This document shows positions 3,150 to 47,807 of a DNA stretch of 64,000 bases, in pieces (position 1 is the first letter of the stretch; the number at the start of each line of letters is the position of its first letter). The DNA is taken from the IMG/VR virus record IMGVR_UViG_3300030060_008569, positions 1 to 64,000 of that record. One strand, 5' to 3'. The notes below the pieces were generated by a model. The model made no database searches. It saw only the letters and a list, made by a program, of their open reading frames with translations, and was not told the DNA's origin. The translations under genes were made by a program, and so were the position numbers. This DNA comes from a virus.

Positions 3150-4232
3150 CTAATTTTTTTTGGGTATGAAGCCGTCAGGCATTGGGGTAGGTTTTGATAA
3201 AGATTTTGGCAATTTTAATCTCATTACTTTTTTAATTGCTTTTGTCTTTGTCTCTTCTACCTTGGCTACCTCTTTTACTTTGTCAAGCTCATCAAGGTAA
3301 TCTTTACCCTTCTTGGTGATGGCGCGACCCGCAGTAGTAATCTGCATCAAGTCCATCTTCTGAAGGTACATCTCAAAGTCACGTTGCACACACGCCTTGG
3401 TAAGACCTGTCTTAGCAGCGAGGTGAGTGAGCGAGCAGTCCTTGACCTTGCCCAACTCACCGAGAATCTGAATCTCGATAGGTGAAAGGCCCAGAGGAGC
3501 AATCCCAAGCTCATGCTGAATCTTTGACCAATCAGCACGACTGAACGCCTTGCGACCCTCTGCCTTGAGGTAGACTGCCATGTTGTTTGCCATCTTCTGA
3601 GCAGCGCGAGCATTGCCGCGAAGCACCGTAGCAATCTCGTCGAGCAAACCATTGTCGAACTTGACACTAGGCAAGGTCAGGTTAACAATCTTACCCAACT
3701 CACTGAACGTGTACTCCTCAAGGTCAACACGCTCGCACCTATCCATCAACGCATGGAATACAGTCTGAGCCTCGGTAGTGGCAAACATAAATGTATGGCG
3801 AGTAAAATCAAAATCTAATACATAATCATCATAAGAAAATGTAGTTTTATTCTCAGGGTTGGGGTTGAGTATGGTCAATAGTGCCATAGTAATGTCACGC
3901 GGTAGCTCGCTACACTCATCAAATAAGATAGTAGCTTCTTTGTGCTGAACGTGCGGGATAAGCACTTGGTTAACGAGTTGCTTGACATTCTTGAGTGTCG
4001 AGCAGTTAATCTCTAGGAAAGGCTTGGGCTTGGACTCGTCCTCCTCAGAGGTGAGCAACTTGCCCATCGCTTTGGCAAGGGTGGTTTTGCCGCAGCCCTT
4101 GGGCGCAACAAACATTAGGTGAGGGCAGATGCCTGTGGCGTTGTAGCCCTTGAGGTAAAAGTTGAGTCGGCGTTTTGCTTTGTCTTGACCGATTAGACCG
4201 TCGAATGGAACACTTTTGTCGTTGTTTTGCAT
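3150..4232 (-). CDS. RuvB-like AAA+ ATPase, 360 aa
   Basis: Starts with FDGLIGQ, as RuvB does, then Walker A (PKGCGKTT, about 44-51), Walker B (ILFDEC, 102-107), sensor-1 ATTE (151-154), a likely arginine finger near R165 and a C-terminal winged-helix region ending in a Lys-rich tail. Closest in architecture to the RuvB Holliday-junction motor, but no RuvA or RuvC is seen here, so a role in recombination or replication is inferred. The mRNA is predicted leaderless: 6 nt from the -10 box to ATG. A clamp-loader-like role is the main alternative. Confidence 0.75.
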   Translation of the reverse strand: MQNNDKSVPFDGLIGQDKAKRRLNFYLKGYNATGICPHLMFVAPKGCGKTTLAKAMGKLLTSEEDESKPKPFLEINCSTLKNVKQLVNQVLIPHVQHKEATILFDECSELPRDITMALLTILNPNPENKTTFSYDDYVLDFDFTRHTFMFATTEAQTVFHALMDRCERVDLEEYTFSELGKIVNLTLPSVKFDNGLLDEIATVLRGNARAAQKMANNMAVYLKAEGRKAFSRADWSKIQHELGIAPLGLSPIEIQILGELGKVKDCSLTHLAAKTGLTKACVQRDFEMYLQKMDLMQITTAGRAITKKGKDYLDELDKVKEVAKVEETKTKAIKKVMRLKLPKSLSKPTPMPDGFIPKKN

Positions 4233-9688: not shown

Positions 9689-10591
9689 TTACCATTTTGG
9701 TAAAAAGAAGTTTTCTCCATACAATTTACCCATAACAGTTCTTAATTTTCTCATGGCTTTATATTGAATCTGTCTTATTCTTTCTCTTGAAACTCCGTAG
9801 CTTTTGGCAATATCTTCTAAAGTTTCTGGAGCTTTCCCGCCAAGGCCAAACCTTCTTCTAATAATTTGCTTTTCTCTACCTTTTAATTTGTTTATAAATA
9901 AAGTTAAATGTTTAACATTATCATGGAATCCAGTAGTCTTATCTGGAGTTGTCATTTGATTATCTTCTAACACATCTCCAAAAGTATCAGAATCAGAATC
10001 ATCACCAAGGGGGGCGTCAACTGATTTTAAATTTAAAACGCCCCCATTAACTAAATCATTTATAGTTTTTTTTGAAACACTTTTTTTTAATTCTTTATAT
10101 ATCTCATCCACTGAAGGCTCATTCCCAAACTCGCTTTTGTATTCACCAATGAATGTTTTAATTTTTCCAATTTTACCTTGAGCTAAATGGTCTGGTATCC
10201 TAATAGTCCTAGATTTATTAGAAAGACATCTTCTTATTTTTTGTTTAATCCAAAGGGAAGCGTAAGTAGAAAATCTAGCACCGTTATTAACATCATATCT
10301 ATCTACGGCATCAAGTAGTCCCATCGCACCTTCATTAATTAAATCTTCTGGCTCCATTCCAGCAAACTTATATTGATGCGCTATTTTAACAACCAATTTT
10401 AAATTATGTAATACTATTAGGTCGTAAGCCTCTTTACCTTCACGGCGTTGCTTTGAGCTACAATTTCTCTTGTTCTTATTCCACTTGTTATATTTAATAA
10501 AAAGCTCATTTAATTCTTTAGTCTTAAAAACTTTTAATTCTCCAATCCTTCCGTGAAGCTGGTCGATTGCGTTTGTATATGTAGTGTGCAT
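9689..10591 (-). CDS. RNA polymerase sigma-70 family factor (primary-type), 300 aa
   Basis: Start taken at ATG 10591, 8 nt after the upstream stop; the longer frame would overlap that gene. Region 2 spans about 54-130, including DLINEGAMGLLDAVDRYD and FSTYASLWIKQKIRR; a region-3-like segment follows; region 4 near 230-290 ends with LEDIAKSYGVSRERIRQIQ. This is a primary or RpoS-like arrangement without region 1.1. It probably redirects host RNA polymerase to phage promoters. Two other sigma-like genes (43282-43989 and 57100-57702) suggest a cascade. Confidence 0.92.
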   Translation of the reverse strand: MHTTYTNAIDQLHGRIGELKVFKTKELNELFIKYNKWNKNKRNCSSKQRREGKEAYDLIVLHNLKLVVKIAHQYKFAGMEPEDLINEGAMGLLDAVDRYDVNNGARFSTYASLWIKQKIRRCLSNKSRTIRIPDHLAQGKIGKIKTFIGEYKSEFGNEPSVDEIYKELKKSVSKKTINDLVNGGVLNLKSVDAPLGDDSDSDTFGDVLEDNQMTTPDKTTGFHDNVKHLTLFINKLKGREKQIIRRRFGLGGKAPETLEDIAKSYGVSRERIRQIQYKAMRKLRTVMGKLYGENFFLPKW

Positions 10592-10599
10592 AATAAATT

Positions 10600-10896
10600 T
10601 TATTTTAAATCGTCTATTCCTTCTACTTGGTATCCGTCCCAATACCAAGTGCCGTCATATTCTTCCGATACTTTTCCTTTCTTGTCCATTCGGATATAAG
10701 AAAAATCTCCCGATACACCTTGGAAGCAGCCAAAATCCTGCAATGGTAAAGTTGCGATTTTAGGACTACCGTTATCGTAAGTGGCGTTAATGCAAGTTAA
10801 ACGCGCATGAGTAGCGTGTTTTGGAGGGCGGGGTATGTCTACCGCCCAATCTGCTCTGCCCACTGTTACAACGGGCTTCTTTTGAAATCTTGACAT
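10600..10896 (-). CDS. hypothetical protein, 98 aa
   Basis: Not recognised. Beta-rich composition with many aromatic residues towards the end (YDGTWYWDGYQVEG). Its ATG overlaps the stop of the 48-aa membrane gene (TAATG), so it belongs to the coupled microprotein operon running from about 12.4 kb down to the sigma factor. Confidence 0.7.
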   Translation of the reverse strand: MSRFQKKPVVTVGRADWAVDIPRPPKHATHARLTCINATYDNGSPKIATLPLQDFGCFQGVSGDFSYIRMDKKGKVSEEYDGTWYWDGYQVEGIDDLK

Positions 10897-16357: not shown

Positions 16358-16386
16358 ACTATACCACCTTTTTTAAGAAATGTCAA
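16358..16386 (-). promoter_or_regulatory. sigma-70 promoter, leaderless, TTTCTTAAAAAA spacer
   Basis: TTGACA (16381-16386), spacer TTTCTTAAAAAAGGTGG, TATAGT (16358-16363). Overlaps the end of the UV endonuclease gene. Confidence 0.85.
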
Positions 16387-17272
16387 GTGCTAAAATTGCA
16401 TCGTCTTTGGACTTGAGTTCGATGTCGTAGTCAACGGGGAAGGACATACCGTAGTCATCTGGCTTGGACACTGGCATATCTGCATGGCTACGGGGATTGG
16501 ACTTGTCTGGATGCGACTCTGAATAATGGAACAGAGGCTTGAAATAACCCGTGCGATGCCAAGTCCGATAACACAACTTGAATGCTGATTCAGCAGTAAG
16601 GCCGTCAGGTAAACATTTGTGATGCAAATTGTCGTAAGTAATTGGAATATTGAAATGCTTTGCAAGTAACTTGGGAGTCCAAATACCCTTGTCCTCGTTC
16701 TCTACAACAAGGCGAGACTGAACTGATTCGTCACACTTGGCAAGGTTAGACATGAAACGTGCAGCAATGTCAGCAGGGTCGCCCTTGGTGTTGTTGACAT
16801 GGATATTGATGGGCGCACGATAGTCGCGGGCCGCACCAAGCATATCCATGAGCCAACCGTGATGATTGAGTTCTTTGATGGTTTTGGCGACATTGTGTTT
16901 GCCCTCGCTTGCAAGAACATTGAACTGGTCAGGATGACAAGAAACGCGAACGCCCTTGCTCTTGATGATGTAAGCGCAATCTGCAAGCGTAGCCATGATG
17001 TCAGCATAGTCGGGGTAATCCTCTAGCTTGAGTTCTGCTACATCGTATGTAAGCAATGGAAACAAATTGGAGCTAACACGATAACCCCAGCCACTAAAAT
17101 AACATTGCTCGATAATCTTACGGGTAACACGCAGGTTATTGAGGGTGCGCTCTGAAACGGTGGCAATAGCCTCTTCGCGAGGTAGCTTGGAAAACCGCGC
17201 CCAAGTCATTGTCTGAAACTTACTACCCTCGGCGGCAAGGGTATTTGAAATACAGCAGAGATTGTACGACAT
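16373..17272 (-). CDS. uvsE: UV damage endonuclease (UvdE/UvsE family), 299 aa
   Basis: A TIM-barrel AP-endonuclease-like enzyme that nicks DNA 5' of UV photoproducts. Family motifs are visible: GYRVSSNLFP near 63-72, SCHPDQFNVLAS near 109-120, INIHVNNTKGD, VVENEDKG, then TYDNLHHK and a His/Glu-containing LFHYSESH, which carry the metal ligands. Normal length for bacterial UvsE. It is expressed alone with a predicted leaderless mRNA. Likely protects phage DNA or the infected cell in sunlit water; the setting is an inference. Confidence 0.93.
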   Translation of the reverse strand: MSYNLCCISNTLAAEGSKFQTMTWARFSKLPREEAIATVSERTLNNLRVTRKIIEQCYFSGWGYRVSSNLFPLLTYDVAELKLEDYPDYADIMATLADCAYIIKSKGVRVSCHPDQFNVLASEGKHNVAKTIKELNHHGWLMDMLGAARDYRAPINIHVNNTKGDPADIAARFMSNLAKCDESVQSRLVVENEDKGIWTPKLLAKHFNIPITYDNLHHKCLPDGLTAESAFKLCYRTWHRTGYFKPLFHYSESHPDKSNPRSHADMPVSKPDDYGMSFPVDYDIELKSKDDAILALDIS

Positions 17273-27104: not shown

Positions 27105-27944
27105 TTATTTACACCATTCTTTTACAATATTTTTAATTACAAAGGCTAAATTCTTCCATTCTTTAAGTCTCCGTAGAGTATAGGGGAGCCAATTTTCGCC
27201 AAAAGGCACATATATTCTAACTTTATGACCTTTATTTTTGTAATTTTCCTGCAAATCTCTTCTTATTCCGTATAAAAATTCGTAGTCAAAAAACTTGGGA
27301 TTCGGGATTAGCTCCTCTATATCTTCTAACAACTCTTCGTCATGGGTAGCTATGGCTGGTTTATTTGCCTTATTTGCGTACAAACTTGCAGCATAGTTAT
27401 AAAAACAGCCACTAATATCAAAATAGTGTTGGTAAGCTATTTTTTCACTCTCCTTGTACGCCCCTTTAACCAAGCGAACCGATATGTTACTTTTTATAAG
27501 TTTTTGCAGGTCAACTGCGGTTCTTAAAAGGTTGGCTTGAATGGCAACGCCAACATTTCCGAACCTTTTATTTAAAAGGATGGCTAAGTCTATGGTTATA
27601 TCGGTCACACGCGAATCTTCCATATCTAAACGAATTGTATGGCCTTTTTTATTTGCAAGTTTTGCTATGAAGGCCATGAGGCCAATAGCCATTTTCGGAT
27701 TTATATGTACGCCTAATTGTGAAGGCTTTATAGATATATCAATTTTTTCATTTGAAAAAGAATTTATAATTCTTATGTATTGATGTTTCGCTTTGTAACA
27801 GTCTAACGAGTTTTTACTTTCTTCCCCCACATAATCAACAGACACTTCGTAACCATCTTCAATCAGTTTATTTATTACTGGCTTGGCCGATTCAAGGGTG
27901 TGACCAGCAATAAACCTCTTTGCCAGTGGATACAAAAATCTCAT
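27105..27944 (-). CDS. proline dehydrogenase (PRODH), 279 aa
   Basis: FAD-dependent oxidation of proline to P5C. Visible motifs: IRLDMED, VRLVKGAYKES, FEFLYGIRR-type (YEFLYGIRRDLQ) and RIYVPFGENWLPYTLRRL, which bind the substrate. Length equals a stand-alone bacterial PRODH, and no P5C-dehydrogenase domain is fused. ATGA overlap with ornithine cyclodeaminase, which makes proline, so the pair would run ornithine to P5C. Confidence 0.9.
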   Translation of the reverse strand: MRFLYPLAKRFIAGHTLESAKPVINKLIEDGYEVSVDYVGEESKNSLDCYKAKHQYIRIINSFSNEKIDISIKPSQLGVHINPKMAIGLMAFIAKLANKKGHTIRLDMEDSRVTDITIDLAILLNKRFGNVGVAIQANLLRTAVDLQKLIKSNISVRLVKGAYKESEKIAYQHYFDISGCFYNYAASLYANKANKPAIATHDEELLEDIEELIPNPKFFDYEFLYGIRRDLQENYKNKGHKVRIYVPFGENWLPYTLRRLKEWKNLAFVIKNIVKEWCK

Positions 27945-28876
27945 TTTAATTGATTCCTCAAGTAAAGATTGTAAACTAAAATTCCAATAGCAATATCTTC
28001 TAGTGATACTCCAGTAGAATCAAAGACAGATACTCCCGCCTCTAAACTAATTTGCTTGTTGTTTTTAATAACGTGTCGCAAAGACCAAGTGTTCAAGTCT
28101 TGCCCAAATCTATATTGCAATTCTCCAGAATGAAACGCTTGAGCAGGGTCATCACATATTATATTTGAAGCTCCAGCAATTACATTTTTCATAAGTTCCC
28201 TTTTTCCTACTGCATCTGCACCTACTGCATTAACATGACAGTTATCTTTTAGGTAATTAAAATCTAAATATGGCTCTGTAGATGGAGTAAGTGTTGTTAC
28301 CAAGTCTGCTTGCCTGACAGCTTCTTTTACGTTTGATGGGTATTTAATTACATTTAAACTTTTTGGAATCTTATCAGCAAGTTTTTGAATTGCTTCTTCG
28401 TTTTTATCGTAAAGAGAAACTGTTTTAATATCTGGGAAAACGCTCCTGTAAGCTAAAAAATGATAGTAAGCCTGAAGGCCGCAGCCGACAAATGCAATTT
28501 CTCTTATATTATTTGGCAAACAATACTTAGCAGCTATGGCCGAGGTGGCCGCAGTTCTATAAGCAGTAAGGGTGGTGCAATCCATAGCCATTAATGGCTG
28601 ACCCGTCTCTCTATCGTTAAGAAGAAGTGTTCCTAGTGTTGTTGGTAAAGAGTTAACTAAATGATTGTTTGGATAAACCCCAATCCATTTTAAGCAAGCA
28701 TAATCTCCTAAAGCCGCTGGCATTGCACGAAAATCTCCTTGTGTGTGAGTATCTAGGTAAATCTTGGGAACCATCTTTGCAGACTCATCTAGGAAAGCGC
28801 TTTCGATAGAAGGTATTATTTTACCCCACTCTTTGTCGAGTAAGTGTGCAACTCCCAAGTCGTTTAATTGCTTCAC
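27941..28876 (-). CDS. ornithine cyclodeaminase / mu-crystallin family, 311 aa
   Basis: NAD-binding Rossmann fold (VGCGLQAYYHF, near 130-140), MDCTTLTAYRTAATSAIAAKY and DSTGVSLEDIA are family hallmarks. OCD converts ornithine to proline and ammonia; related family members are alanine dehydrogenase or tauropine-type enzymes. The coupling to PRODH argues for the ornithine activity. Confidence 0.88.
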   Translation of the reverse strand: MKQLNDLGVAHLLDKEWGKIIPSIESAFLDESAKMVPKIYLDTHTQGDFRAMPAALGDYACLKWIGVYPNNHLVNSLPTTLGTLLLNDRETGQPLMAMDCTTLTAYRTAATSAIAAKYCLPNNIREIAFVGCGLQAYYHFLAYRSVFPDIKTVSLYDKNEEAIQKLADKIPKSLNVIKYPSNVKEAVRQADLVTTLTPSTEPYLDFNYLKDNCHVNAVGADAVGKRELMKNVIAGASNIICDDPAQAFHSGELQYRFGQDLNTWSLRHVIKNNKQISLEAGVSVFDSTGVSLEDIAIGILVYNLYLRNQLK

Positions 28877-34754: not shown

Positions 34755-35294
34755 TTATCTTAATTCCTTTCTTAGTAATCTCCACCTGTCACTATCAATA
34801 GCCTTTTTGCCATCATTTATTTGGTGAATCATTTCTAATACTTCTTCTATATTGTTATAAATGTAATGGTGTGGGAGCATTCCCATAATCCATAAAGGGG
34901 TTTGACTCTTACCCCCTTCCATAGACACAAATACGGGTTTCTTCGCTCGAACTGCGGTAACAAGTTCCTCTGCGCTACCCCAGCTTGCTATATCTGGCAA
35001 AATGTGAGCAATAATGAAGTCAGACCTATCAACAAGATTAAGGTCATAGTTGCGAACAGTTCTCATCCTTTCGGCTACGTCATTGTAGTAACCGCTGGCC
35101 ATATCTTCGGCCATCTTTTGGCGAGCACCCTCGTCCTCTTCTACGTCTTTTACGAAAGGCTTACGATAAGGGTTGAAAGTGATAATGTTGAGCTTTTCTA
35201 GCTCATCTTCAACATATTTTCTCCAATCACGGCCACTTGCATATTGCATATGGCCCACTAGATATGTCCTTGTCTTCTCTAATACGTTTGACAT
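34755..35294 (-). CDS. nucleoside 2-deoxyribosyltransferase-like protein, 179 aa
   Basis: YLVGHMQYASGRDWRKYVE at the start, then VRNYDLNLVDRSDFIIAHI and ASWGSAEELVTAVRAKKPVFV resemble the NDT fold; the WGSAEEL Glu is in the usual nucleophile position. Could salvage or modify nucleosides, or make or hydrolyse nucleotide signals as related phage-defence proteins do. Leaderless promoter 6 nt upstream. Confidence 0.75.
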   Translation of the reverse strand: MSNVLEKTRTYLVGHMQYASGRDWRKYVEDELEKLNIITFNPYRKPFVKDVEEDEGARQKMAEDMASGYYNDVAERMRTVRNYDLNLVDRSDFIIAHILPDIASWGSAEELVTAVRAKKPVFVSMEGGKSQTPLWIMGMLPHHYIYNNIEEVLEMIHQINDGKKAIDSDRWRLLRKELR

Positions 35295-35300
35295 GCTATG

Positions 35301-35329
35301 AATATAGCACGTTTTTGATGGGTTGTCAA
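35301..35329 (-). promoter_or_regulatory. sigma-70 promoter, leaderless
   Basis: TTGACA (35324-35329), 17-nt spacer ending ACGTGC, TATATT (35301-35306), 6 nt to ATG 35294. The -35 overlaps the stop codon of the bS21 gene. Confidence 0.85.
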
Positions 35330-35529
35330 CCCCAATATTCGCGTTCTTGCTTGGACTTTAGTTTTTGGATATATTTAGCTTTTCTTTCTTTCTTATATTT
35401 CTTTCGGGTGGGCTTTTCGTAGTATCTTTTTTCTCTAGCGTAATCTAGAGTTTTCTCTTTCAATAGTTTTCTCTTGAGCTTTTTGATGCCCTTCTCTACA
35501 TTTTCCCCTTTTTTTAGTTTTATTTCCAT
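35326..35529 (-). CDS. rpsU: ribosomal protein bS21 homologue, 67 aa
   Basis: Near-standard bS21: IKLKKGENVEKGIKKLKRKLLKE then LDYAREKRYYEKPTRKKYKKE. bS21 sits by the anti-Shine-Dalgarno of 16S rRNA and helps initiation. Phage copies are known from some marine and huge phages and may bias ribosomes to phage mRNAs. It starts 1 nt after the lysine-dehydrogenase-like gene, so is at the end of that operon. Confidence 0.92.
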   Translation of the reverse strand: MEIKLKKGENVEKGIKKLKRKLLKEKTLDYAREKRYYEKPTRKKYKKERKAKYIQKLKSKQEREYWG

Positions 35530-35530
35530 T

Positions 35531-36679
35531 TTAAAATTGAATCCCTAATTCTTTCATGTTCTCATTAAATTTATCAAAAGGTACATCCGAATAGTTTAAT
35601 ACTATTGGCAGCGAAATATCACCCCCTCGGTTCTGAACCTTCCTTTCGTCAAAGAATCCCTCTGCCATTAATTTAGCCACTGAAGATATGGAAAATGCGG
35701 TTGACTTTTGCATGGCGGTAAATTGCAAGTCGTAGCCTACAATGATTTCTTTTTTCCAAGTAACATTGCCACCACTCACCTCTACCTTTAACAGCACGAC
35801 ATCTCCAGTGTGATTTTCGCAGTTGTTAAAAATATCTTGTAAGCATTCTTTAGACAGTTTGGTATTTCTAATTAAAAGCCTAACCATATCTCTGTGGCCT
35901 TTATATCTTATAGTTTTATAAGAACAATTAGACACATCTCTTTTTGCCATGCTGGCGATTGAATGGGAAGCTCCTCCACTTGTGTAAAAGGCCTCTAGCT
36001 CTTCATCCCCCAGTAAATCAAAAGTCACTGGCTCTAGCCCATCCATGCCCTTTACCTTTTCTATGAGTCCGTTATTTAAAACCTCACAGTCGTCTTCATA
36101 TTCATTTATAAGCCCATCTACAGACCAAGTACAAGCATAATTTAAAGGTGGGTTTATTTTTATAGCAGGGATGCCACCGACCATCATCTTAACATTTTCA
36201 ACCTCGTGATGTAACTCTGAATAACCTTGCTCTGCTAAAATATTTACCCAACCGGGGGCCAATCCCAAGTCTGTAAAGATAGGTTTAGTTGCGTTCTCTT
36301 TAGCGTAGTCATTTATGTTTTGAGAAACGTCAACTCTACCCCCCAAGTCACAGTAGCGAATGCCGTTGTCTATACAATACTTTGCTACAGTTTCAGTTTG
36401 ATAATAAGGTAAACTACTGATAACAATATCTGGTTTTACTTGAGCCTCTAAACCTTTACAAATATCTTCTGAGTTACTAACAATAAAAAACTCATTGCGA
36501 GGTGCTCCCACGATGTTATTACCCTCTTCGTCTTGCGTCTGTTCGTAATTGACTTTTTTAGGAATGTTCTCTGCCGCATCTGGATTAGTGTCCATTCCAA
36601 CCACATGAAATCCGAATTTGTCCATTGCATAAGCAATGGCGGTTCCCATTCTTCCAACACCTAATACTATAGCTTTCAT
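35531..36679 (-). CDS. saccharopine/lysine-6-dehydrogenase-like enzyme, 382 aa
   Basis: NAD(P)-binding GxGxxG (VLGVGRMGTAIAY, 6-18), then SSLPYYQTETVAKYC, TDLGLAPGWVNILAEQG and CTWSVDGLINEYED, all typical of the saccharopine dehydrogenase family and closest in style to lysine 6-dehydrogenase. The expected reaction oxidises lysine to piperideine-6-carboxylate. It shares an operon with an aldehyde dehydrogenase able to take that product. Carboxynorspermidine or saccharopine activities cannot be excluded. Confidence 0.78.
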   Translation of the reverse strand: MKAIVLGVGRMGTAIAYAMDKFGFHVVGMDTNPDAAENIPKKVNYEQTQDEEGNNIVGAPRNEFFIVSNSEDICKGLEAQVKPDIVISSLPYYQTETVAKYCIDNGIRYCDLGGRVDVSQNINDYAKENATKPIFTDLGLAPGWVNILAEQGYSELHHEVENVKMMVGGIPAIKINPPLNYACTWSVDGLINEYEDDCEVLNNGLIEKVKGMDGLEPVTFDLLGDEELEAFYTSGGASHSIASMAKRDVSNCSYKTIRYKGHRDMVRLLIRNTKLSKECLQDIFNNCENHTGDVVLLKVEVSGGNVTWKKEIIVGYDLQFTAMQKSTAFSISSVAKLMAEGFFDERKVQNRGGDISLPIVLNYSDVPFDKFNENMKELGIQF

Positions 36680-37044
36680 ATTTCTTCTATCCTTTTTGAC
36701 TTATCATCAATCACCAAATCGCAAGCTGGTTTAATATACTTACCTTTGGAGCCGGTAGACAAGTCATTAAACTTGCACCCCCAACCTTCTAGCTGGTTCC
36801 AAGTAAAATCATAGTAACATCTGCCAGCCGCTTTAGATTTTTCAGAGCCTCCGCGAGCTGTCCAATAAATAATGTACCAACCTTCGTCGTACATTTTGTT
36901 TATTTTAGCTATGTTTTCTTGATGAGGTTTCGCTAAATCATAACGCCTCTTACCTTCTTCGTAAAAACATACCGTTTCATCTATGTCTACCAACGCCACT
37001 TGTTGGTCATCCGCAGCAAACTGCTTCGAATCGTGAAATTCCAT
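36676..37044 (-). CDS. HAD-family phosphatase-like, 122 aa
   Basis: Start at ATG 37044 just after the previous stop. DIDETVC (near 20-26) is the HAD nucleophile motif DxDxT; IIYWTARGG and DLVIDDK supply motifs II and III-like parts. Comparable to phage polynucleotide-kinase 3'-phosphatase-like small HADs. Substrate unknown. Confidence 0.75.
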   Translation of the reverse strand: MEFHDSKQFAADDQQVALVDIDETVCFYEEGKRRYDLAKPHQENIAKINKMYDEGWYIIYWTARGGSEKSKAAGRCYYDFTWNQLEGWGCKFNDLSTGSKGKYIKPACDLVIDDKSKRIEEI

Positions 37045-37048
37045 TTTA

Positions 37049-37252
37049 TTATTTGTAAACTTTACGAGTTCTTGGTCCGGATTCATCATCAGCTTCAGCA
37101 GACTCTTGTGAATCTCTGTATTGGTGAATTTCAGAAACCCTAGCCATTAAAAACTCCCTATCCTCTTGGGATAATTCTTTGGTATCTGACCAAGGCATAC
37201 CTAAAGTAGTCATAATATGCCAATTTTCTTCTTGTGTACTCATTTTACTCAT
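37049..37252 (-). CDS. hypothetical acidic protein, 67 aa
   Basis: TAATG overlap with the aldehyde dehydrogenase stop selects ATG 37252. Helical and acidic. Not recognised. Confidence 0.6.
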   Translation of the reverse strand: MSKMSTQEENWHIMTTLGMPWSDTKELSQEDREFLMARVSEIHQYRDSQESAEADDESGPRTRKVYK

Positions 37253-38787
37253 TATTTCATTCCTTGTGGAAAAGTTAATTTGTCTGCGTGGTTAACAGTC
37301 CAGCTAATTTCATGGGTAACAGCCCTGAATGTTCTTGCTGCACTAGGAAATCCATTGCCAGATTTTTTAACACCGCCGAAAGCTAAGTGCGATTCAGCAG
37401 CGATTGAACCTCCGTTCCAGTATATCATGCCAGCATCGCATTCGTCTCTCATTACTCTTGCTTTTCTAAAGTCATTTGTCAACACTCCAACAGCTAAACC
37501 ATATTCAGTATCATTGTAAATTCTAATAGCATCCTCGACTGTATCAAAGGGAATTATTGCTACATGAGGCCCGAACACTTCATTCCTTAGAAAACCTGCA
37601 TCGCAGTTAGTCCATTCTCTTTTATAAACCATTGGAGTGCTGTAGTATGCTCCGTTTTCACCAGTGTAAACAGGGTCAAGTAACACTTCAGCTTTTGGGT
37701 CTGAGTGTACCAGTTTATTCATGAATCTTATCTTACTAAACCCTTGCTCATTAATAATTGGGCCATAGTATATATCTTCGTTTGGTACTAGCTCTTCCCA
37801 AACCATTCCATCTGGACAACCAGATGAGCCAAGCATAGATTTGAATGGGTTCCCTGTTTTTATTTGTTTAGCTTTTGCAGCAAATTTCTCGGAAAACTCA
37901 TGGTATATACTTCGCTGTACAATCATTCTACCAGATGATACGCAACGCTGACCAGACAGCTTAAATGCACTAGCAATAGAAGCCTCAATGGCTAAATCAA
38001 TTTCAACGTCATCAAAAACAATGCAAGCGGATTTACTACCTAATTCGCATGAGGTAGTTTTGTGCCATGATTCAGCAGCAACTTTACGAATGTGTTGTCC
38101 GACATCAGCACTACCAGTAAAACAGATGTGGTCGCAATTACCCCTAACCAAAAAATCGCCAGTAGCACCATCGCCATGCACCAAGTTAATGACCCCACGA
38201 GGGATGCCAGCCTCCTCATAAATTTGAACAGCGGCTTGAGTTGACATTGGTGCGTCTTCACTTGGTTTAATTACAATAGTATTCCCCTCTACTAAAGCTG
38301 GGGCAGCGTTCCAAAACATGCCTATTGCCAGCGGAAAGTTAAATGGAGTTACAATAGCTATTACACCTTTAGGCTTTCGTAGCATATACGCATCTTTTTC
38401 AGCAATTTCTGAAGAAACAGCTTCGCCATGACTATAACGGCCAGAACCAAAAGCAAACTGTGCCATGTGCAAGGCTTCATTAACCTCTGCGATACTTTCG
38501 TTGTAGTTTTTCCCTGTTTCAAGTGAAATAATCGTAGCTAATTTATTTTTATCCCTTTCAATTATTTGAGCAACCTTATTTAAATAATCTGAACGGGTAA
38601 ATCTACTAACCTTTTTCCAAGTTTTAAAAGCCTCTCTAGCAGAAAGTAGCGCCTTGCCAACCTCATCCTTGCAACTTAAGGGGAACGCACCTTGCGCCTT
38701 TCCGGTTGCAGGGTTAATTTTAGTATACATGTCGGCGGTAGCTCGCCACACGCCATTGATATAGTTCCTACCTTCGAAATCCCTCAT
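37252..38787 (-). CDS. NAD(P)-dependent aldehyde dehydrogenase, 511 aa
   Basis: Start at ATG 38787 (ATGA overlap with the VOC gene). Classic ALDH: VTPFNFPLAIGMFWNAAPAL, FTGSADVGQHI, catalytic Glu in CELGSKS, catalytic Cys in SGQRCVSSGRM, EVFGPHVAI and a late FGGVKKSGNG. Its context suggests aminoadipate-semialdehyde or glutamate-semialdehyde oxidation, but substrate cannot be read from sequence alone. Complete length. Confidence 0.93.
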   Translation of the reverse strand: MRDFEGRNYINGVWRATADMYTKINPATGKAQGAFPLSCKDEVGKALLSAREAFKTWKKVSRFTRSDYLNKVAQIIERDKNKLATIISLETGKNYNESIAEVNEALHMAQFAFGSGRYSHGEAVSSEIAEKDAYMLRKPKGVIAIVTPFNFPLAIGMFWNAAPALVEGNTIVIKPSEDAPMSTQAAVQIYEEAGIPRGVINLVHGDGATGDFLVRGNCDHICFTGSADVGQHIRKVAAESWHKTTSCELGSKSACIVFDDVEIDLAIEASIASAFKLSGQRCVSSGRMIVQRSIYHEFSEKFAAKAKQIKTGNPFKSMLGSSGCPDGMVWEELVPNEDIYYGPIINEQGFSKIRFMNKLVHSDPKAEVLLDPVYTGENGAYYSTPMVYKREWTNCDAGFLRNEVFGPHVAIIPFDTVEDAIRIYNDTEYGLAVGVLTNDFRKARVMRDECDAGMIYWNGGSIAAESHLAFGGVKKSGNGFPSAARTFRAVTHEISWTVNHADKLTFPQGMK

Positions 38788-39341
38788 TTTCTTGTACTTT
38801 CCATTAATCCTTTTACGTTGTCCTTGCAAAACCCATCTCCAGTTCTATTTATAAGCTCATAAATGACTCCCGTCAACTCAGAAGGCTTTGTAAATACCTG
38901 AACTAAACCTTCGCACCTCAAGGGTGCGCTCGAATAAAATTCAGCATAACCAGCATTAAGCCACATTTTCATTGTAGCATCAACATCTTCTACTTGATAA
39001 GCTATATGATGAACTCCGGGTCCATTTTCCTCAACCCAGTCACCCACAATAGAGCCTTTGGGTCCGTCACTAACGAATATTTCAGGGGGAGAGTGGTAGG
39101 GGTGGAATTGAGCCTCAACTTTTTGACCTTTAGAGTCTGGAGCGTCAGCTAAAAGCACCTCCCATTCTGAGATTTCAGGATGCCTCTCTTCTGGTGGGAG
39201 TAAAGCTAGGCACTCCGCCTTAGTCCCATCACTGAAATCTATTTCAAATTCTGTGCCAAGCGTATACCCCAAGCACCTTTTAAGAAATTTGGCTGTTTTT
39301 TTCCTGTTTTTTACTCTGTAGGCTATATGGTCTAACCTCAT
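38784..39341 (-). CDS. VOC-superfamily (glyoxalase/HPPD-like) protein, 185 aa
   Basis: Start at ATG 39341, 7 nt after the -10 box. Two beta-alpha-beta-beta-beta repeats: LDHIAYRVKNRKKTAKFL near the start and VHHIAYQVEDVDATMKMW later, each with a metal-ligand His, then GVIYELINR with a Glu. Metal-dependent lyase, isomerase or dioxygenase-type chemistry; the exact substrate is unknown. First gene of the ALDH operon. Confidence 0.75.
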   Translation of the reverse strand: MRLDHIAYRVKNRKKTAKFLKRCLGYTLGTEFEIDFSDGTKAECLALLPPEERHPEISEWEVLLADAPDSKGQKVEAQFHPYHSPPEIFVSDGPKGSIVGDWVEENGPGVHHIAYQVEDVDATMKMWLNAGYAEFYSSAPLRCEGLVQVFTKPSELTGVIYELINRTGDGFCKDNVKGLMESTRK

Positions 39342-39348
39342 TTTAAAT

Positions 39349-39377
39349 ATTATATCATATAAGAAATGTTTTTTCAA
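39349..39377 (-). promoter_or_regulatory. sigma-70 promoter of the VOC/ALDH operon, leaderless
   Basis: TTGAAA (39372-39377), 17-nt spacer, TATAAT (39349-39354), 7 nt to ATG 39341. It drives VOC, ALDH, 67-aa, HAD, dehydrogenase and bS21 genes, which have no larger gap. Confidence 0.8.
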
Positions 39378-41403: not shown

Positions 41404-42165
41404 ATGGAAATATACTACGAACATTATTTTGGGAGTATGACGCAACATGATATGATTGTATGTTGGGTTCTCGCTAAGAATGTTTTGCCTCAAGAGGAGA
41501 AGTTCGCCTTAGAAAACGGCTGGCGAGAAGTTTATGAGACAGAACAAGGCGTATGGGTTCAAGCAAGAAGCGTAAGATTGAAGACTTCTTCGTTTAGAAC
41601 TAATAAAAAAGTTAGAAAAATGCTCAATCCAGCTACTGGTATTGAAAGTAATTTTAAACCCGCTTCTCAGTGTAATTTAGAGGAGCTTAATGAGGTATAT
41701 CACAAATATGCAAAATACAAAAATTTTCCAATAGAAAAAAACTACATAGAAGATTGTCTTGTGGATATAGACTCAAAAATAATAGGAGAGTATAGAGAAG
41801 ATGGACTGCTTAGAGCTTACGTAATATGTAGAATGCATGATGAGTCAGCAAAGGCTATGACATCGCTACAGTTTTGTTGGGACTACGATAAACCCCAGAT
41901 GTTTTTGGGCAAATTCAGCATGGTCAAAGAGCTACAATTCGCAATAGAAAATAAGCTAGACTGGGTTTACATAGGGGATGGGTATCAAAAAATTTGCGAG
42001 TACAAATGTAGTTTTCCGGGGTTTCAATTTTGGACGGGACGAAAGTGGATAAGTGATATAAACTTATACAAAGAACTTATAAAAAATGACGACAAAGTAA
42101 AAACAGTTCAAGAATTAGACAAGTTATCAAAAGATTATATGGAAAACAAAACATTTGAAAAGTAA
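41404..42165 (+). CDS. aminoacyl-tRNA-protein transferase-like (Bpt/Ate1 style) GNAT protein, 253 aa
   Basis: The C-terminal half has LDWVYIGDGYQKICEYKCSFPGFQFWTGRKW, which resembles the leucyl/arginyl-tRNA-protein transferase pattern in which an N-degron residue is added to protein N-termini. The N-terminal Cys-rich region of true Ate1 is missing. A FemX-type peptidyltransferase is an alternative. It is near PAP2 and tmRNA genes. Confidence 0.55.
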   Translation: MEIYYEHYFGSMTQHDMIVCWVLAKNVLPQEEKFALENGWREVYETEQGVWVQARSVRLKTSSFRTNKKVRKMLNPATGIESNFKPASQCNLEELNEVYHKYAKYKNFPIEKNYIEDCLVDIDSKIIGEYREDGLLRAYVICRMHDESAKAMTSLQFCWDYDKPQMFLGKFSMVKELQFAIENKLDWVYIGDGYQKICEYKCSFPGFQFWTGRKWISDINLYKELIKNDDKVKTVQELDKLSKDYMENKTFEK

Positions 42166-42173
42166 AATATAAA

Positions 42174-42869
42174 ATGGACTCAGACATCAACATAGATTTC
42201 ACCGACAAAATAAAAGCCAACGAAGCGGATAAGTTAACTTATCGTGGGCCAGATGGATTTCCGGGAGAAGACAAAAGAGAATTTAAATATTTAGATTTAG
42301 ATATTAAAAAACTTTTAGACTTTCCGCCTCCCGCTAATTCAAGTAAACAAACTTTAGAAGAACTTGCTGAGGTTAAAGAAATAACAGAATTAGAGCACCC
42401 CGAAAGCTTTACGTCTAAATTAAAAGAAATGGACAAAGAGCCGTATGCATTTGTATATGACTATTACGAAAAAATATCCGGAAAAAAAATACCCAAGAAA
42501 GCTTTTGAAATTATAAATAGCGGAGACATTGAAACATTCGTTATGAAGTTGAAGCTTCATTACAATAGACCAAGGCCGCACGAATTGGCTTTACATTACA
42601 AAACATATTTAAGGTATAATAAAAAAATAGCGAGTAAAAGCGGAACTGCCGCTTCGCCATCTTACCCTAGTGGACATACAATGGCAGCATACTTTGCAGC
42701 GCATATTGCCGCGCATATTAGACCAGACCTTAAAGAGCAGCTAATCAAAAGAGCAGATTTTGTAGCTTACTCAAGATTATACGAAGGACTTCACTTTCGT
42801 AGCGACAACGACTTTTCTGTTTATTTGGTTGAGAATGTTTTAATGCCAGCCTTTTTAAAGGCTATTTAA
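42174..42869 (+). CDS. PAP2-family phosphatase, 231 aa
   Basis: The acid-phosphatase signature is complete: KLHYNRPRP (near 123-131), SPSYPSGHTMAAYF, and SRLYEGLHFRSD, where His and Arg residues form the catalytic site. The N-terminal 75 residues are a charged extension. No clear transmembrane set, so a soluble enzyme is likely. Substrate unknown. Converges with the tmRNA gene. Confidence 0.88.
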   Translation: MDSDINIDFTDKIKANEADKLTYRGPDGFPGEDKREFKYLDLDIKKLLDFPPPANSSKQTLEELAEVKEITELEHPESFTSKLKEMDKEPYAFVYDYYEKISGKKIPKKAFEIINSGDIETFVMKLKLHYNRPRPHELALHYKTYLRYNKKIASKSGTAASPSYPSGHTMAAYFAAHIAAHIRPDLKEQLIKRADFVAYSRLYEGLHFRSDNDFSVYLVENVLMPAFLKAI

Positions 42870-42871
42870 AT

Positions 42872-43274
42872 TGGTGGAGGCGAGGGGAGTCGAACCCCTG
42901 TCTTTGGAGCCTATCGGCTCAGACTTCTACAAGCTTAGTCGGTGTTAAATACTCGCTTGGCATGTCACCGACAAACGGCCTACACGAGTTTTGAGCAACC
43001 TTTTATCCTAGTGCTGCTCGGCCCTAGTTTTTTGCCCGCTATCGACGCCCTAGCTCCTTAACGAGCATCCAGAGTAGGACGGGTAACTTACGCAGTTACA
43101 GCAGCTTCTTCAGCCCAGCCGAACTTAGCGAGAATCGCATCAGCTTCAGCAAGTGAAGGAGCCATATCAACATTATTGGCAGTTGAATTACCTTGATAGA
43201 TGATTTAAGAGGCCGACTATCATCCTCTGCTTGCTATCTGGCGTAAGAACCCAAATCGAATCCAGTACGCCCCC
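42872..43274 (-). ncRNA. ssrA: tmRNA (one-piece), 30-aa proteolysis tag
   Basis: tRNA-like ends are complete: 5' GGGGGCG with TGGATTCGAT, and 3' GGGGTTCGACTCCCC then CGCCTCC plus ACCA, with acceptor pairing. The tag frame from GCC (43180) to TAA (43088) encodes 30 residues beginning ANNVDMAP and ending EEAAVTA. Rescues stalled ribosomes and tags nascent proteins for proteolysis. Only 7 nt separate it from the upstream ECF sigma stop; a candidate promoter AATCAAAATGTGTAACAAT (43278-43296) overlaps that gene. Confidence 0.93.
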
Positions 43275-43281
43275 AAAATTG

Positions 43282-43989
43282 TTACACATTTTGATTATAG
43301 TTTTTAATGTTTTTACAAAGTTTCTGCGCTTTCTTCCTAGCGTAAAATAATCTAGACATAACTGTTCCTAGCGCACATTTTTGCATCTTTGCTATCTCTT
43401 CGTAAGAAAGGCCTTCCGCTACAGCCACTAAGCACTCTTTATGTTCAGGGGAAAGACTGCTTAAAACTTGCTCCAACTCTTTAGAAAGCTCTTCGTTGTT
43501 GTCGATTATCTCTAAAAGCTTATCTGGCTGCTCTGTTTTTTCAACAACCATTTCAAAAAGAGTTTTACCCCAGTCGTTAGACTTTGGCGTTTTTCGTATG
43601 TCCAAGCTGTTTTTCGCCGAGGGTATTTTCGTGTCGTCTGCTTGATTTTGGGGGCCATTGTTACCGTAGTGGCCAATGTACGCTTCAAAAGAAACTTCAG
43701 CTTTCCTTTTTTTCCAAGAGTTATAATCGAATGCCGCGCTCCTCATTACCCTGTATATCCAAGTTTTAAAATGGCAATCAAGTCTAAATTTAGGGAAAGC
43801 TTTCCAAGCTTTTAAGCAGCCTTTCTGAAAGATGTCTTGAGCTTCATGGTAGGTGTCGGTATACCTATGAGATATTGCCATCATATATTCACCATGCCTT
43901 TCTACAAGAATATCAAATGCTTTTTTGTTGTGTTCCGAGGCTAGAACAGATAATTCTTTATCAGACTTTTCACCCAAAGACGCGCTCAT
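43282..43989 (-). CDS. ECF-type RNA polymerase sigma factor, 235 aa
   Basis: Region 2 (AFDILVERHGEYMMAISHR, DIFQKGCLKAWKAFPKF, FKTWIYRVMRSAAFD) and region 4 (LSSLSPEHKECLVAVAEGLSYEEIAKMQKCALGTVMSRLFYARKKA) are clear, separated by a long linker. No region 3, so ECF class. Would direct part of phage transcription. Operonic with small genes upstream. Confidence 0.9.
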   Translation of the reverse strand: MSASLGEKSDKELSVLASEHNKKAFDILVERHGEYMMAISHRYTDTYHEAQDIFQKGCLKAWKAFPKFRLDCHFKTWIYRVMRSAAFDYNSWKKRKAEVSFEAYIGHYGNNGPQNQADDTKIPSAKNSLDIRKTPKSNDWGKTLFEMVVEKTEQPDKLLEIIDNNEELSKELEQVLSSLSPEHKECLVAVAEGLSYEEIAKMQKCALGTVMSRLFYARKKAQKLCKNIKNYNQNV

Positions 43990-47081: not shown

Positions 47082-47807
47082 TTAATAGTTATTTAATAAT
47101 ACTCTTATAGTTTCTTGGGGCTCAGTTACCGGCCAGTAAAGGCCATCTCCATTTTTTCGTATGTCCTCACATATCTCGTAATCATTCCCGCCAGCATAAC
47201 ACTTGTCTCCAAAGAAAATAATTTCTGAGTCTTTGTTGTTTTCCCTTATCCACTGAGAAGCTTGAGATTTGTCGCTCCCCCTTGGGTTTATGTCTATACT
47301 TATTTGGCCTCCTATAGAAACATCTATATCGGGGAATTGAGACCTTACAAATGAACTTATGGCGGCCCTTTCTTTATTAGCCTTGTCCCAATCAAAATAC
47401 CTTTGTCTTTCTGGTTTATCTGCATTTCTGCCTACAATAGAAAAGTTAAGCATTCCAGAGCGATGCTCTATGTGGTTCCCTGTTTTAGTGTCGTAATTGG
47501 TTTCTAATAAAAAATCATTTAATATATTCAATAGTTTAGCTGGAACGTCCCATTTGTTTTTGTAAACGTAAGAATCTCTACTGCAATCGTAAAATTCGTT
47601 AGCCATAGAAGGAAATATACCGGCGCACCTAGACAAAATGCTATTGGGTAGTTGCTCTTTTATTTTTTTCATATCACTACCAGAAACTAAATAAACCTTT
47701 TTACCTGACATCCAAGTAACAAACTGCATTGTGAACGAAGTGCCTGCTTTACCTCTGGGTGGGGTTAAAGTTCCATCCACATCAAATAAAAAAAATCTAG
47801 AATTCAT
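47082..47807 (-). CDS. phosphomannomutase (eukaryotic PMM type, HAD fold), 241 aa
   Basis: DVDGTLTPP at the start, then SGSDMKKIKEQL, GNHIEHRSGMLNFSIVGR, GGQISIDINPRGSDKSQ and FFGDKCYAGGNDYEI are the PMM signature. It converts mannose-6-P to mannose-1-P for GDP-sugar synthesis. This family is mainly eukaryotic; bacterial and phage copies are less common. It lies with sugar transferases in this block. Confidence 0.88.
   Translation of the reverse strand: MNSRFFLFDVDGTLTPPRGKAGTSFTMQFVTWMSGKKVYLVSGSDMKKIKEQLPNSILSRCAGIFPSMANEFYDCSRDSYVYKNKWDVPAKLLNILNDFLLETNYDTKTGNHIEHRSGMLNFSIVGRNADKPERQRYFDWDKANKERAAISSFVRSQFPDIDVSIGGQISIDINPRGSDKSQASQWIRENNKDSEIIFFGDKCYAGGNDYEICEDIRKNGDGLYWPVTEPQETIRVLLNNY

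What the first reader, a model, noticed from the sequence alone, without database searches (positions are those of the whole stretch)
35531..39341. Lysine-6-dehydrogenase-like plus aldehyde dehydrogenase operon
VOC, ALDH, HAD, dehydrogenase and bS21 genes run as one unit from a leaderless promoter. Lysine to piperideine-6-carboxylate and then aminoadipate is the expected logic. The same ALDH could oxidise glutamate semialdehyde made from P5C by the PRODH pair, linking both modules into amino-acid catabolism yielding glutamate/2-oxoglutarate, which two 2OG oxygenases (50189, 59133) could use.
Basis: inference. Interest (0 to 1): 0.75.

Follow-up and report, generated by a model that had tools for sequence, protein, structure and literature searches.

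The report
Phage cassette for amino-acid semialdehyde oxidation
This marine virus and dozens of relatives carry a small set of overlapping genes that probably breaks lysine- or proline-family amino acids down into acidic amino acids during infection; the enzyme types are familiar, but this recurring combination in phages, including giant ones, appears undescribed and includes one enzyme of unknown task.

Summary
The operon is real: VOC, ALDH, a 67-aa ORF, HAD, saccharopine-dehydrogenase-fold enzyme (SDH) and bS21 overlap or abut behind an 11/12 promoter 7 nt before the VOC ATG. The core recurs widely. Of 73 distinct viral VOC loci, 40 have the ALDH directly downstream; 28 of those carry SDH and 8 a lysine-6-transaminase-like gene nearby. 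VOC and a same-family ALDH also co-occur, unlinked, in megaphages. SDH best matches L-lysine 6-dehydrogenase in fold and motif, and lacks the carboxyspermidine-dehydrogenase triad. The ALDH keeps its catalytic residues but fails every curated equivalog cut-off, including piperideine-6-carboxylate and glutamate-semialdehyde dehydrogenase. Its nearest cellular clade lies beside proline dehydrogenase, which argues as much for glutamate semialdehyde as for aminoadipate semialdehyde. The window also has a PRODH-OCD pair, and several relatives have both modules. Best reading: a viral catabolic module whose ALDH oxidises amino-acid semialdehydes supplied by interchangeable enzymes. The lysine arm is plausible but unproven. 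The VOC (invariant H5/E87/H112/E162, methylmalonyl-CoA-epimerase/HPPD fold) is the most widespread part, and its reaction is unknown. Substrates, host and physiological benefit are untested.

The parts
39349..39377 (-). promoter-like site TTGAAA-N17-TATAAT with extended TG, 7 nt before the VOC start codon (leaderless arrangement)
   Evidence: 11 of 12 matches; relatives
38784..39341 (-). VOC-fold protein, 185 aa; invariant putative metal ligands H5, E87, H112, E162
37252..38787 (-). aldehyde dehydrogenase, 511 aa; catalytic N150, K174, E248, C282 conserved, GQRC motif
37049..37252 (-). 67-aa ORF of unknown function between ALDH and HAD; weak 36-44% matches near some relatives
36676..37044 (-). 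small HAD-type phosphatase (DIDET motif); start at MEFH by comparison (mechanical ORF begins 37089)
35531..36679 (-). saccharopine-dehydrogenase-fold NAD-type dehydrogenase, lysine-6-dehydrogenase-like, 382 aa
35326..35529 (-). ribosomal protein bS21, last gene of the unit
35301..35329 (-). second promoter-like site TTGACA-N17-TATATT, 6 nt before the next gene (34755-35294), suggesting the unit ends with bS21
27105..27944 (-). proline dehydrogenase (PRODH), probable partner module
27941..28876 (-). ornithine cyclodeaminase/mu-crystallin family protein, overlapping PRODH by 4 nt

Best explanation
It is a virus-encoded amino-acid-catabolism cassette. The hub is an NAD(P)-dependent aldehyde dehydrogenase that oxidises the semialdehyde of an alpha-amino acid (aminoadipate semialdehyde/P6C and/or glutamate semialdehyde/P5C) to the dicarboxylic amino acid. 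In this phage the semialdehyde would be made by the lysine-6-dehydrogenase-like enzyme (removing the terminal amino group of lysine, perhaps ornithine, with NAD+) and by the PRODH module (proline to P5C, proline possibly from ornithine by the OCD-family enzyme). In other phage lineages a lysine-6-transaminase-like enzyme with an arginine-dihydrolase-like enzyme takes that place. The output would be glutamate or aminoadipate, ammonia and reduced cofactor for virus replication. The VOC enzyme acts in the same context but its reaction is unknown; the HAD may be accessory. Shown: gene order, conservation, family and fold, intact catalytic residues. Inferred: substrates, direction, physiological benefit.
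For: 40 of 73 distinct VOC loci have the ALDH directly downstream; 28 of these have SDH and 8 have LAT within ten genes. VOC and same-family ALDH co-occur unlinked in further records up to 595 kb (13 of 31 records with an ALDH match). Nearest solved fold to SDH is L-lysine dehydrogenase 3abi, TM 0.83-0.84 by target, E 6e-24, ahead of carboxyspermidine and saccharopine dehydrogenases. The Y-x-T-x-R..GH motif is conserved in nearly all SDH-cluster rows (some duplicate contigs), matching by position the substrate residues modelled for LysEDH (PMC6697735; correspondence inferred by motif). LAT-like gene: 484 and 475 bits vs cut-off 520.8 for L-lysine 6-transaminase, far above other transaminase models; arginine-dihydrolase-like neighbour. 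ALDH clade is sister (100/99) to haloarchaeal ALDHs adjacent to PRODH. PRODH in 9 and OCD in 9 of 37 related records, both in 5. SDH and PRODH adjacent in G026.
Against: No protein reaches an equivalog cut-off that fixes a substrate. SDH and ALDH relatives point to different amino acids (lysine vs proline). Most VOC records without an adjacent ALDH lack SDH (found in 4 of 34 records), and in megaphages ALDH lies near an alpha-keto-acid-decarboxylase-like gene. VOC has no obvious step in known lysine or proline catabolism. Most records are fragments and no host or expression is known.
Confidence: 0.5

Rival explanations
1. The ALDH is in effect a P5C (glutamate semialdehyde) dehydrogenase serving only the proline/ornithine/arginine branch; SDH is an ornithine- or other-amine-specific relative of lysine 6-dehydrogenase, and lysine is not involved.
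For: Closest cellular ALDHs are beside proline dehydrogenase; PRODH and OCD in the window and relatives; SDH next to PRODH in G026; arginine-dihydrolase-like gene beside LAT.
Against: The SDH fold and motif are lysine-dehydrogenase-like; the aminotransferase is best matched by the lysine model, not the ornithine one (484 vs 167 bits); the ALDH scores no better with P5C-dehydrogenase models.
Confidence: 0.25
2. General detoxification: ALDH and VOC (glyoxalase-like) remove reactive aldehydes produced in the dying cell, with SDH reducing or oxidising unrelated imines.
For: VOC and ALDH folds are common in detoxification; VOC and ALDH are the most conserved pair; VOC has a four-ligand H/E/H/E pattern like glyoxalase I (pattern from memory).
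Against: VOC is closest in fold and sequence to methylmalonyl-CoA epimerase and HPPD/HMS, not glyoxalase I; the recurrent companions make amino-acid-derived semialdehydes.
Confidence: 0.1
3. Biosynthesis rather than catabolism: the cassette makes a modified building block (for example an aminoadipate-, pipecolate- or aryl-acid-type group) for glycan, nucleotide or protein modification.
For: In several relatives the cassette sits among nucleotide-sugar and glycosyltransferase genes (GDP-mannose dehydratase-like, UDP-galactopyranose mutase, GT2); nucleotide-sugar-dehydrogenase-like genes flank ALDH in other lineages.
Against: Sugar genes are not constant; many relatives have replication genes (DnaB, RecA, Toprim) as neighbours instead.
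Confidence: 0.11
4. SDH is a carboxy(nor)spermidine dehydrogenase and the operon makes polyamines.
For: Same fold superfamily; phages are known to carry polyamine genes (PMC9992855).
Against: The CASDH His-Glu-Glu triad (PMC10413350) is absent: an HEE string occurs in only one locus (L020/L069, the same contig), near its C-terminal end and not in the active-site region; lysine dehydrogenase is the better fold match; no decarboxylase partner was seen.
Confidence: 0.04

Closest known systems
L-lysine 6-dehydrogenase (PH1688, PDB 3abi; Geobacillus LysEDH) with piperideine-6-carboxylate dehydrogenase (NF050084)
   Same: SDH has the closest fold and a shared YxTxR..GH motif; pairing with an ALDH; an SDH homologue on plasmid pRiA4 lies near a true P6C dehydrogenase
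   Different: SDH is about 22% identical in structure alignment to 3abi; the phage ALDH is outside the P6C-dehydrogenase family (258 of 730 bits) and forms its own clade; VOC and HAD are added
Proline dehydrogenase + ALDH (P5C-dehydrogenase-type) loci of haloarchaeal plasmids
   Same: ALDH sister clade (about 40% identity, 100/99 support); PRODH also present in the phage
   Different: In the phage, ALDH and PRODH are about 9 kb apart in separate units and ALDH is tied to VOC and SDH
L-lysine 6-transaminase family (TIGR03251)
   Same: Phage groups L103-L113 carry a close relative next to VOC-ALDH
   Different: Below the equivalog cut-off (484/475 vs 520.8); not seen in this window
Methylmalonyl-CoA epimerase / HPPD-hydroxymandelate synthase VOC families
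   Same: Closest folds and sequence; conserved H/H/E metal-site pattern
   Different: Single-chain 185 aa with a fourth acidic ligand candidate (E87); far below both family cut-offs
Phage auxiliary metabolic genes (e.g. pelagiphage polyamine enzymes, PMC9992855; lysine-degradation AMGs reported for large Bay of Bengal phages, PMC10732071)
   Same: Virus-carried central-metabolism enzymes
   Different: No description of this VOC-ALDH-centred cassette found in the papers searchable here

Membership tests
L-lysine 6-dehydrogenase | Fold closest to 3abi within the saccharopine-dehydrogenase superfamily | tested here: met
   ranks 1-2, TMt 0.83-0.84, E 6e-24; next CASDH 4e-18
L-lysine 6-dehydrogenase | Tyr/Thr/Arg substrate residues (Y238/T240/R242 of LysEDH) | tested here: inconclusive
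   Motif YKT(L/I)RY.GH conserved; numbering correspondence inferred, LysEDH sequence not available; T and R also occur in saccharopine dehydrogenase
L-lysine 6-dehydrogenase | NAD-dependent oxidation of lysine to P6C | not testable with these tools
   needs assay; conserved Asp at position 30 is compatible with NAD
carboxy(nor)spermidine dehydrogenase | His228-Glu229-Glu230 triad | tested here: not met
   criterion from PMC10413350
piperideine-6-carboxylate dehydrogenase (NF050084) | Score above curated cut-off of 730 bits | tested here: not met
   258 bits; true members on pRiA4/pSymB score 810-824
P5C / glutamate-semialdehyde dehydrogenase (TIGR01237, PRK03137) | Score above curated cut-off (about 650-660 bits) | tested here: not met
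   256 and 286 bits; but sister clade is PRODH-linked
catalytic aldehyde dehydrogenase superfamily | Catalytic Cys, Glu and oxyanion Asn | tested here: met
   C282, E248, N150 invariant in A6; PF00171 405 bits
methylmalonyl-CoA epimerase | Score above TIGR03081 cut-off of 115 bits | tested here: not met
   42.6 bits; fold nearest
4-hydroxyphenylpyruvate dioxygenase | Score above TIGR01263 cut-off; two-domain protein | tested here: not met
   32 of 277 bits, tail match only
bS21 ribosomal protein | TIGR00030 above cut-off | tested here: met
   44.6 vs 28.95 bits

The most novel reading that the evidence does not exclude
VOC-ALDH is an ancient, essentially virus-borne two-enzyme hub shared by T4-sized marine phages and 200-600 kb megaphages. 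The VOC catalyses a not-yet-described step on amino-acid-derived semialdehydes, cyclic imines or keto acids, and each phage lineage plugs its own aldehyde-producing enzyme (lysine-dehydrogenase-like, lysine-transaminase-like, proline dehydrogenase or keto-acid decarboxylase) into it.
Probability: 0.25. Interest if true: 0.75.

Novelty: new variant of a known kind. Interest (0 to 1): 0.55.

Why it matters
Phage auxiliary metabolism is known mainly for photosynthesis, nucleotides, carbon and polyamines. A recurrent cassette for oxidising lysine/proline-family amino acids would show that marine phages and megaphages also redirect host amino-acid carbon and nitrogen. The interchangeable upstream enzymes with one constant ALDH and a constant VOC make a precise, testable prediction about the shared intermediate, and point to an uncharacterised enzyme family (the VOC) found in at least 100 viral contigs.

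Tried and rejected
Single-sequence search for VOC relatives found nothing; the alignment query worked. Carboxynorspermidine dehydrogenase was rejected. Assigning the ALDH by curated families failed because all equivalogs score far below cut-off. The one genome-collection scan found only two cellular-labelled SDH relatives, one of them on a contig that looks viral (L036, same gene order as viral L032), so cellular operon context came from plasmid records instead. A phylum sample for VOC (301 genomes) gave only one full-length match, in the MAG that holds that phage-like contig; the rest were partial matches to the C-terminal half. Two calls with a wrong centre handle failed. Literature searches for this cassette found nothing specific; the library holds only openly licensed papers. 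I recognised IF-3-, GroES- and DnaJ-like neighbours in megaphages by eye only.
Full report
WHAT IS THERE. The window is 64,000 bases of a 65,861-bp virus record, a fragment. On the minus strand, VOC (38784-39341), ALDH (37252-38787), a 67-aa ORF (37049-37252), HAD (to 36676), SDH (35531-36679) and bS21 (35326-35529) follow one another with 1-4-nt overlaps or gaps of a few bases. The start codons given here for VOC, ALDH and HAD come from conservation. A TTGAAA-N17-TATAAT site ends 7 nt before the VOC ATG. A TTGACA-N17-TATATT site ends 6 nt before the next gene at 35294. These are the only two 11/12 sites in 6 kb, although promoter-like sites overall are not enriched.

CONSERVATION. Searches of IMG/VR with the ALDH gave 28 loci at 62-88% identity, and a VOC alignment gave 102 confirmed loci, of which 80 were kept. 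Among 73 distinct VOC loci, 40 have the ALDH immediately downstream; 28 of these carry SDH and 8 carry a lysine-6-transaminase-like gene within ten genes. HAD is often between ALDH and SDH. Five of the 40 have neither SDH nor LAT, most of them near a contig end. In 31 VOC records where ALDH was not adjacent, 13 have an ALDH elsewhere; twelve score 620-1005 bits with the phage model, against about 510 for the nearest cellular clade, while LR756504 has only a 234-bit match. SDH is found in only 4 of 34 such records. VOC is thus the widest part, ALDH next, SDH more restricted. Records are fragments, so absences mean little.

THE DEHYDROGENASE. Pfam places it in saccharopine dehydrogenase (PF16653, PF03435). 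The best sequence hit in the PDB is 3abi, described as L-lysine 6-dehydrogenase in PMC10413350 and titled L-lysine dehydrogenase. An AlphaFold2 model (pLDDT 89.9) matches 3abi best (TMt 0.83-0.84), then carboxyspermidine dehydrogenase and human saccharopine dehydrogenase. The Y.T.R..GH motif is nearly invariant. In a modelled lysine epsilon-dehydrogenase, Y238, T240 and R242 contact the substrate amino acid group (PMC6697735). I infer by motif spacing, not by direct alignment, that these are the same residues. The His-Glu-Glu triad that marks carboxyspermidine dehydrogenase (PMC10413350) is missing. A relative on Rhizobium plasmid pRiA4 lies about 4.4 kb from a genuine piperideine-6-carboxylate dehydrogenase (810 bits, cut-off 730). 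This supports a lysine-dehydrogenase-like function without proving the substrate.

THE ALDEHYDE DEHYDROGENASE. Catalytic residues are invariant. No equivalog is reached: 311 of 770 for ketoglutarate-semialdehyde, 258 of 730 for P6C, 256 of 660 and 286 of 648 for glutamate semialdehyde. The closest plasmid homologues are haloarchaeal (about 40% identity), and six of seven inspected sit beside proline dehydrogenase, some with a sodium/proline symporter. In a maximum-likelihood tree the phage proteins form one clade, sister to these (100/99); P6C dehydrogenases, PutA and other types fall outside, although some of those outer branches are long. So the ALDH evidence leans to P5C/glutamate semialdehyde, the SDH evidence to lysine. 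An ALDH accepting both homologous semialdehydes reconciles them, but this is inference.

PARTNERS. A distinct group (L103-L113) has VOC-ALDH followed by an arginine-dihydrolase/dimethylargininase-like protein, a protein best matched by L-lysine 6-transaminase (484 and 475 of 520.8 bits; ornithine model 167 and 163) and a nucleotide-sugar-dehydrogenase-like protein; two loci also have SDH, and three have an OCD-family gene upstream. The window itself has OCD-family and PRODH genes overlapping by 4 nt at 27105-28876. Among 37 related records PRODH occurs in 9 and OCD in 9, both in 5. In a 245-kb record SDH and PRODH are neighbours. In megaphages the ALDH lies near an indolepyruvate/phenylpyruvate-decarboxylase-like gene (334-351 bits, cut-off 554.5) and the nucleotide-sugar-dehydrogenase-like gene. 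All these companions make aldehydes or semialdehydes from amino acids, except the last. The OCD-family member cannot be assigned: its best model is archaeal alanine dehydrogenase, below cut-off.

THE VOC. H5, E87, H112 and E162 are invariant over 51 diverse proteins. The model (pLDDT 90) resembles methylmalonyl-CoA epimerase and hydroxymandelate synthase/HPPD. It is below both family cut-offs. Close relatives are nearly absent from plasmids (2 weak hits) and from 301 sampled genomes of one phylum (one full-length match, in a MAG carrying a phage-like contig). Its reaction is the main open question.

MECHANISM. Most likely: SDH (or a transaminase, or PRODH) produces P6C or P5C, which opens to the semialdehyde; the ALDH oxidises it to aminoadipate or glutamate; ammonia and NAD(P)H are released. 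bS21 in the same unit would tie expression to takeover of translation, but this is speculative. I give 0.5 to this reading and separate rivals as listed.

NOVELTY. Enzyme types are known and virus-borne metabolism is a known kind. The VOC-ALDH-centred, partner-swapping cassette was not found in the literature that could be searched, though large marine phages have been noted to carry lysine-degradation genes (PMC10732071). I therefore call it a new variant of a known kind.

Noticed in passing
window 42872-43274 (-): The virus carries a tmRNA gene (RF00023, 138.6 bits; ARAGORN tag AEADAILAKFGWAEEAAVTA).
   Followed up: no
window 9689-10648 (-) and 43282-43989 (-): Two sigma-70-family proteins, one with regions 2-4 and one with regions 2 and 4.
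   Followed up: no
window 41404-42165 (+): Protein with the C-terminal domain of arginine-tRNA-protein transferase, followed by a PAP2-family protein at 42174-42869.
   Followed up: no
window 47082-47807 (-): HAD-IIB protein matching eukaryotic-type phosphomannomutase (E 3e-35), also present near the cassette in several relatives.
   Followed up: partly
L007, L014, L017, L018, L020, L021, L023, L024, L027: A Clp-protease-like gene (PF00574) lies directly or closely downstream of ALDH in nine related loci, hinting at a proteolysis-to-catabolism link.
   Followed up: no
L187, L191, L194 (megaphage ALDH loci): Indolepyruvate/phenylpyruvate-decarboxylase-like TPP enzyme a few genes from the ALDH; similar-sized genes at the same place in L188-L190.
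   Followed up: partly
L186:8049-10330: SDH-like and proline-dehydrogenase genes side by side (one 94-aa ORF between) in a 245-kb viral record.
   Followed up: partly
L018:7201-7701: SET-domain protein between HAD and SDH in three related phages.
   Followed up: no
window 16373-17272 (-): UV-endonuclease UvdE-like protein, and a RuvB-like AAA protein at 3150-4232.
   Followed up: no
   Followed up: yes
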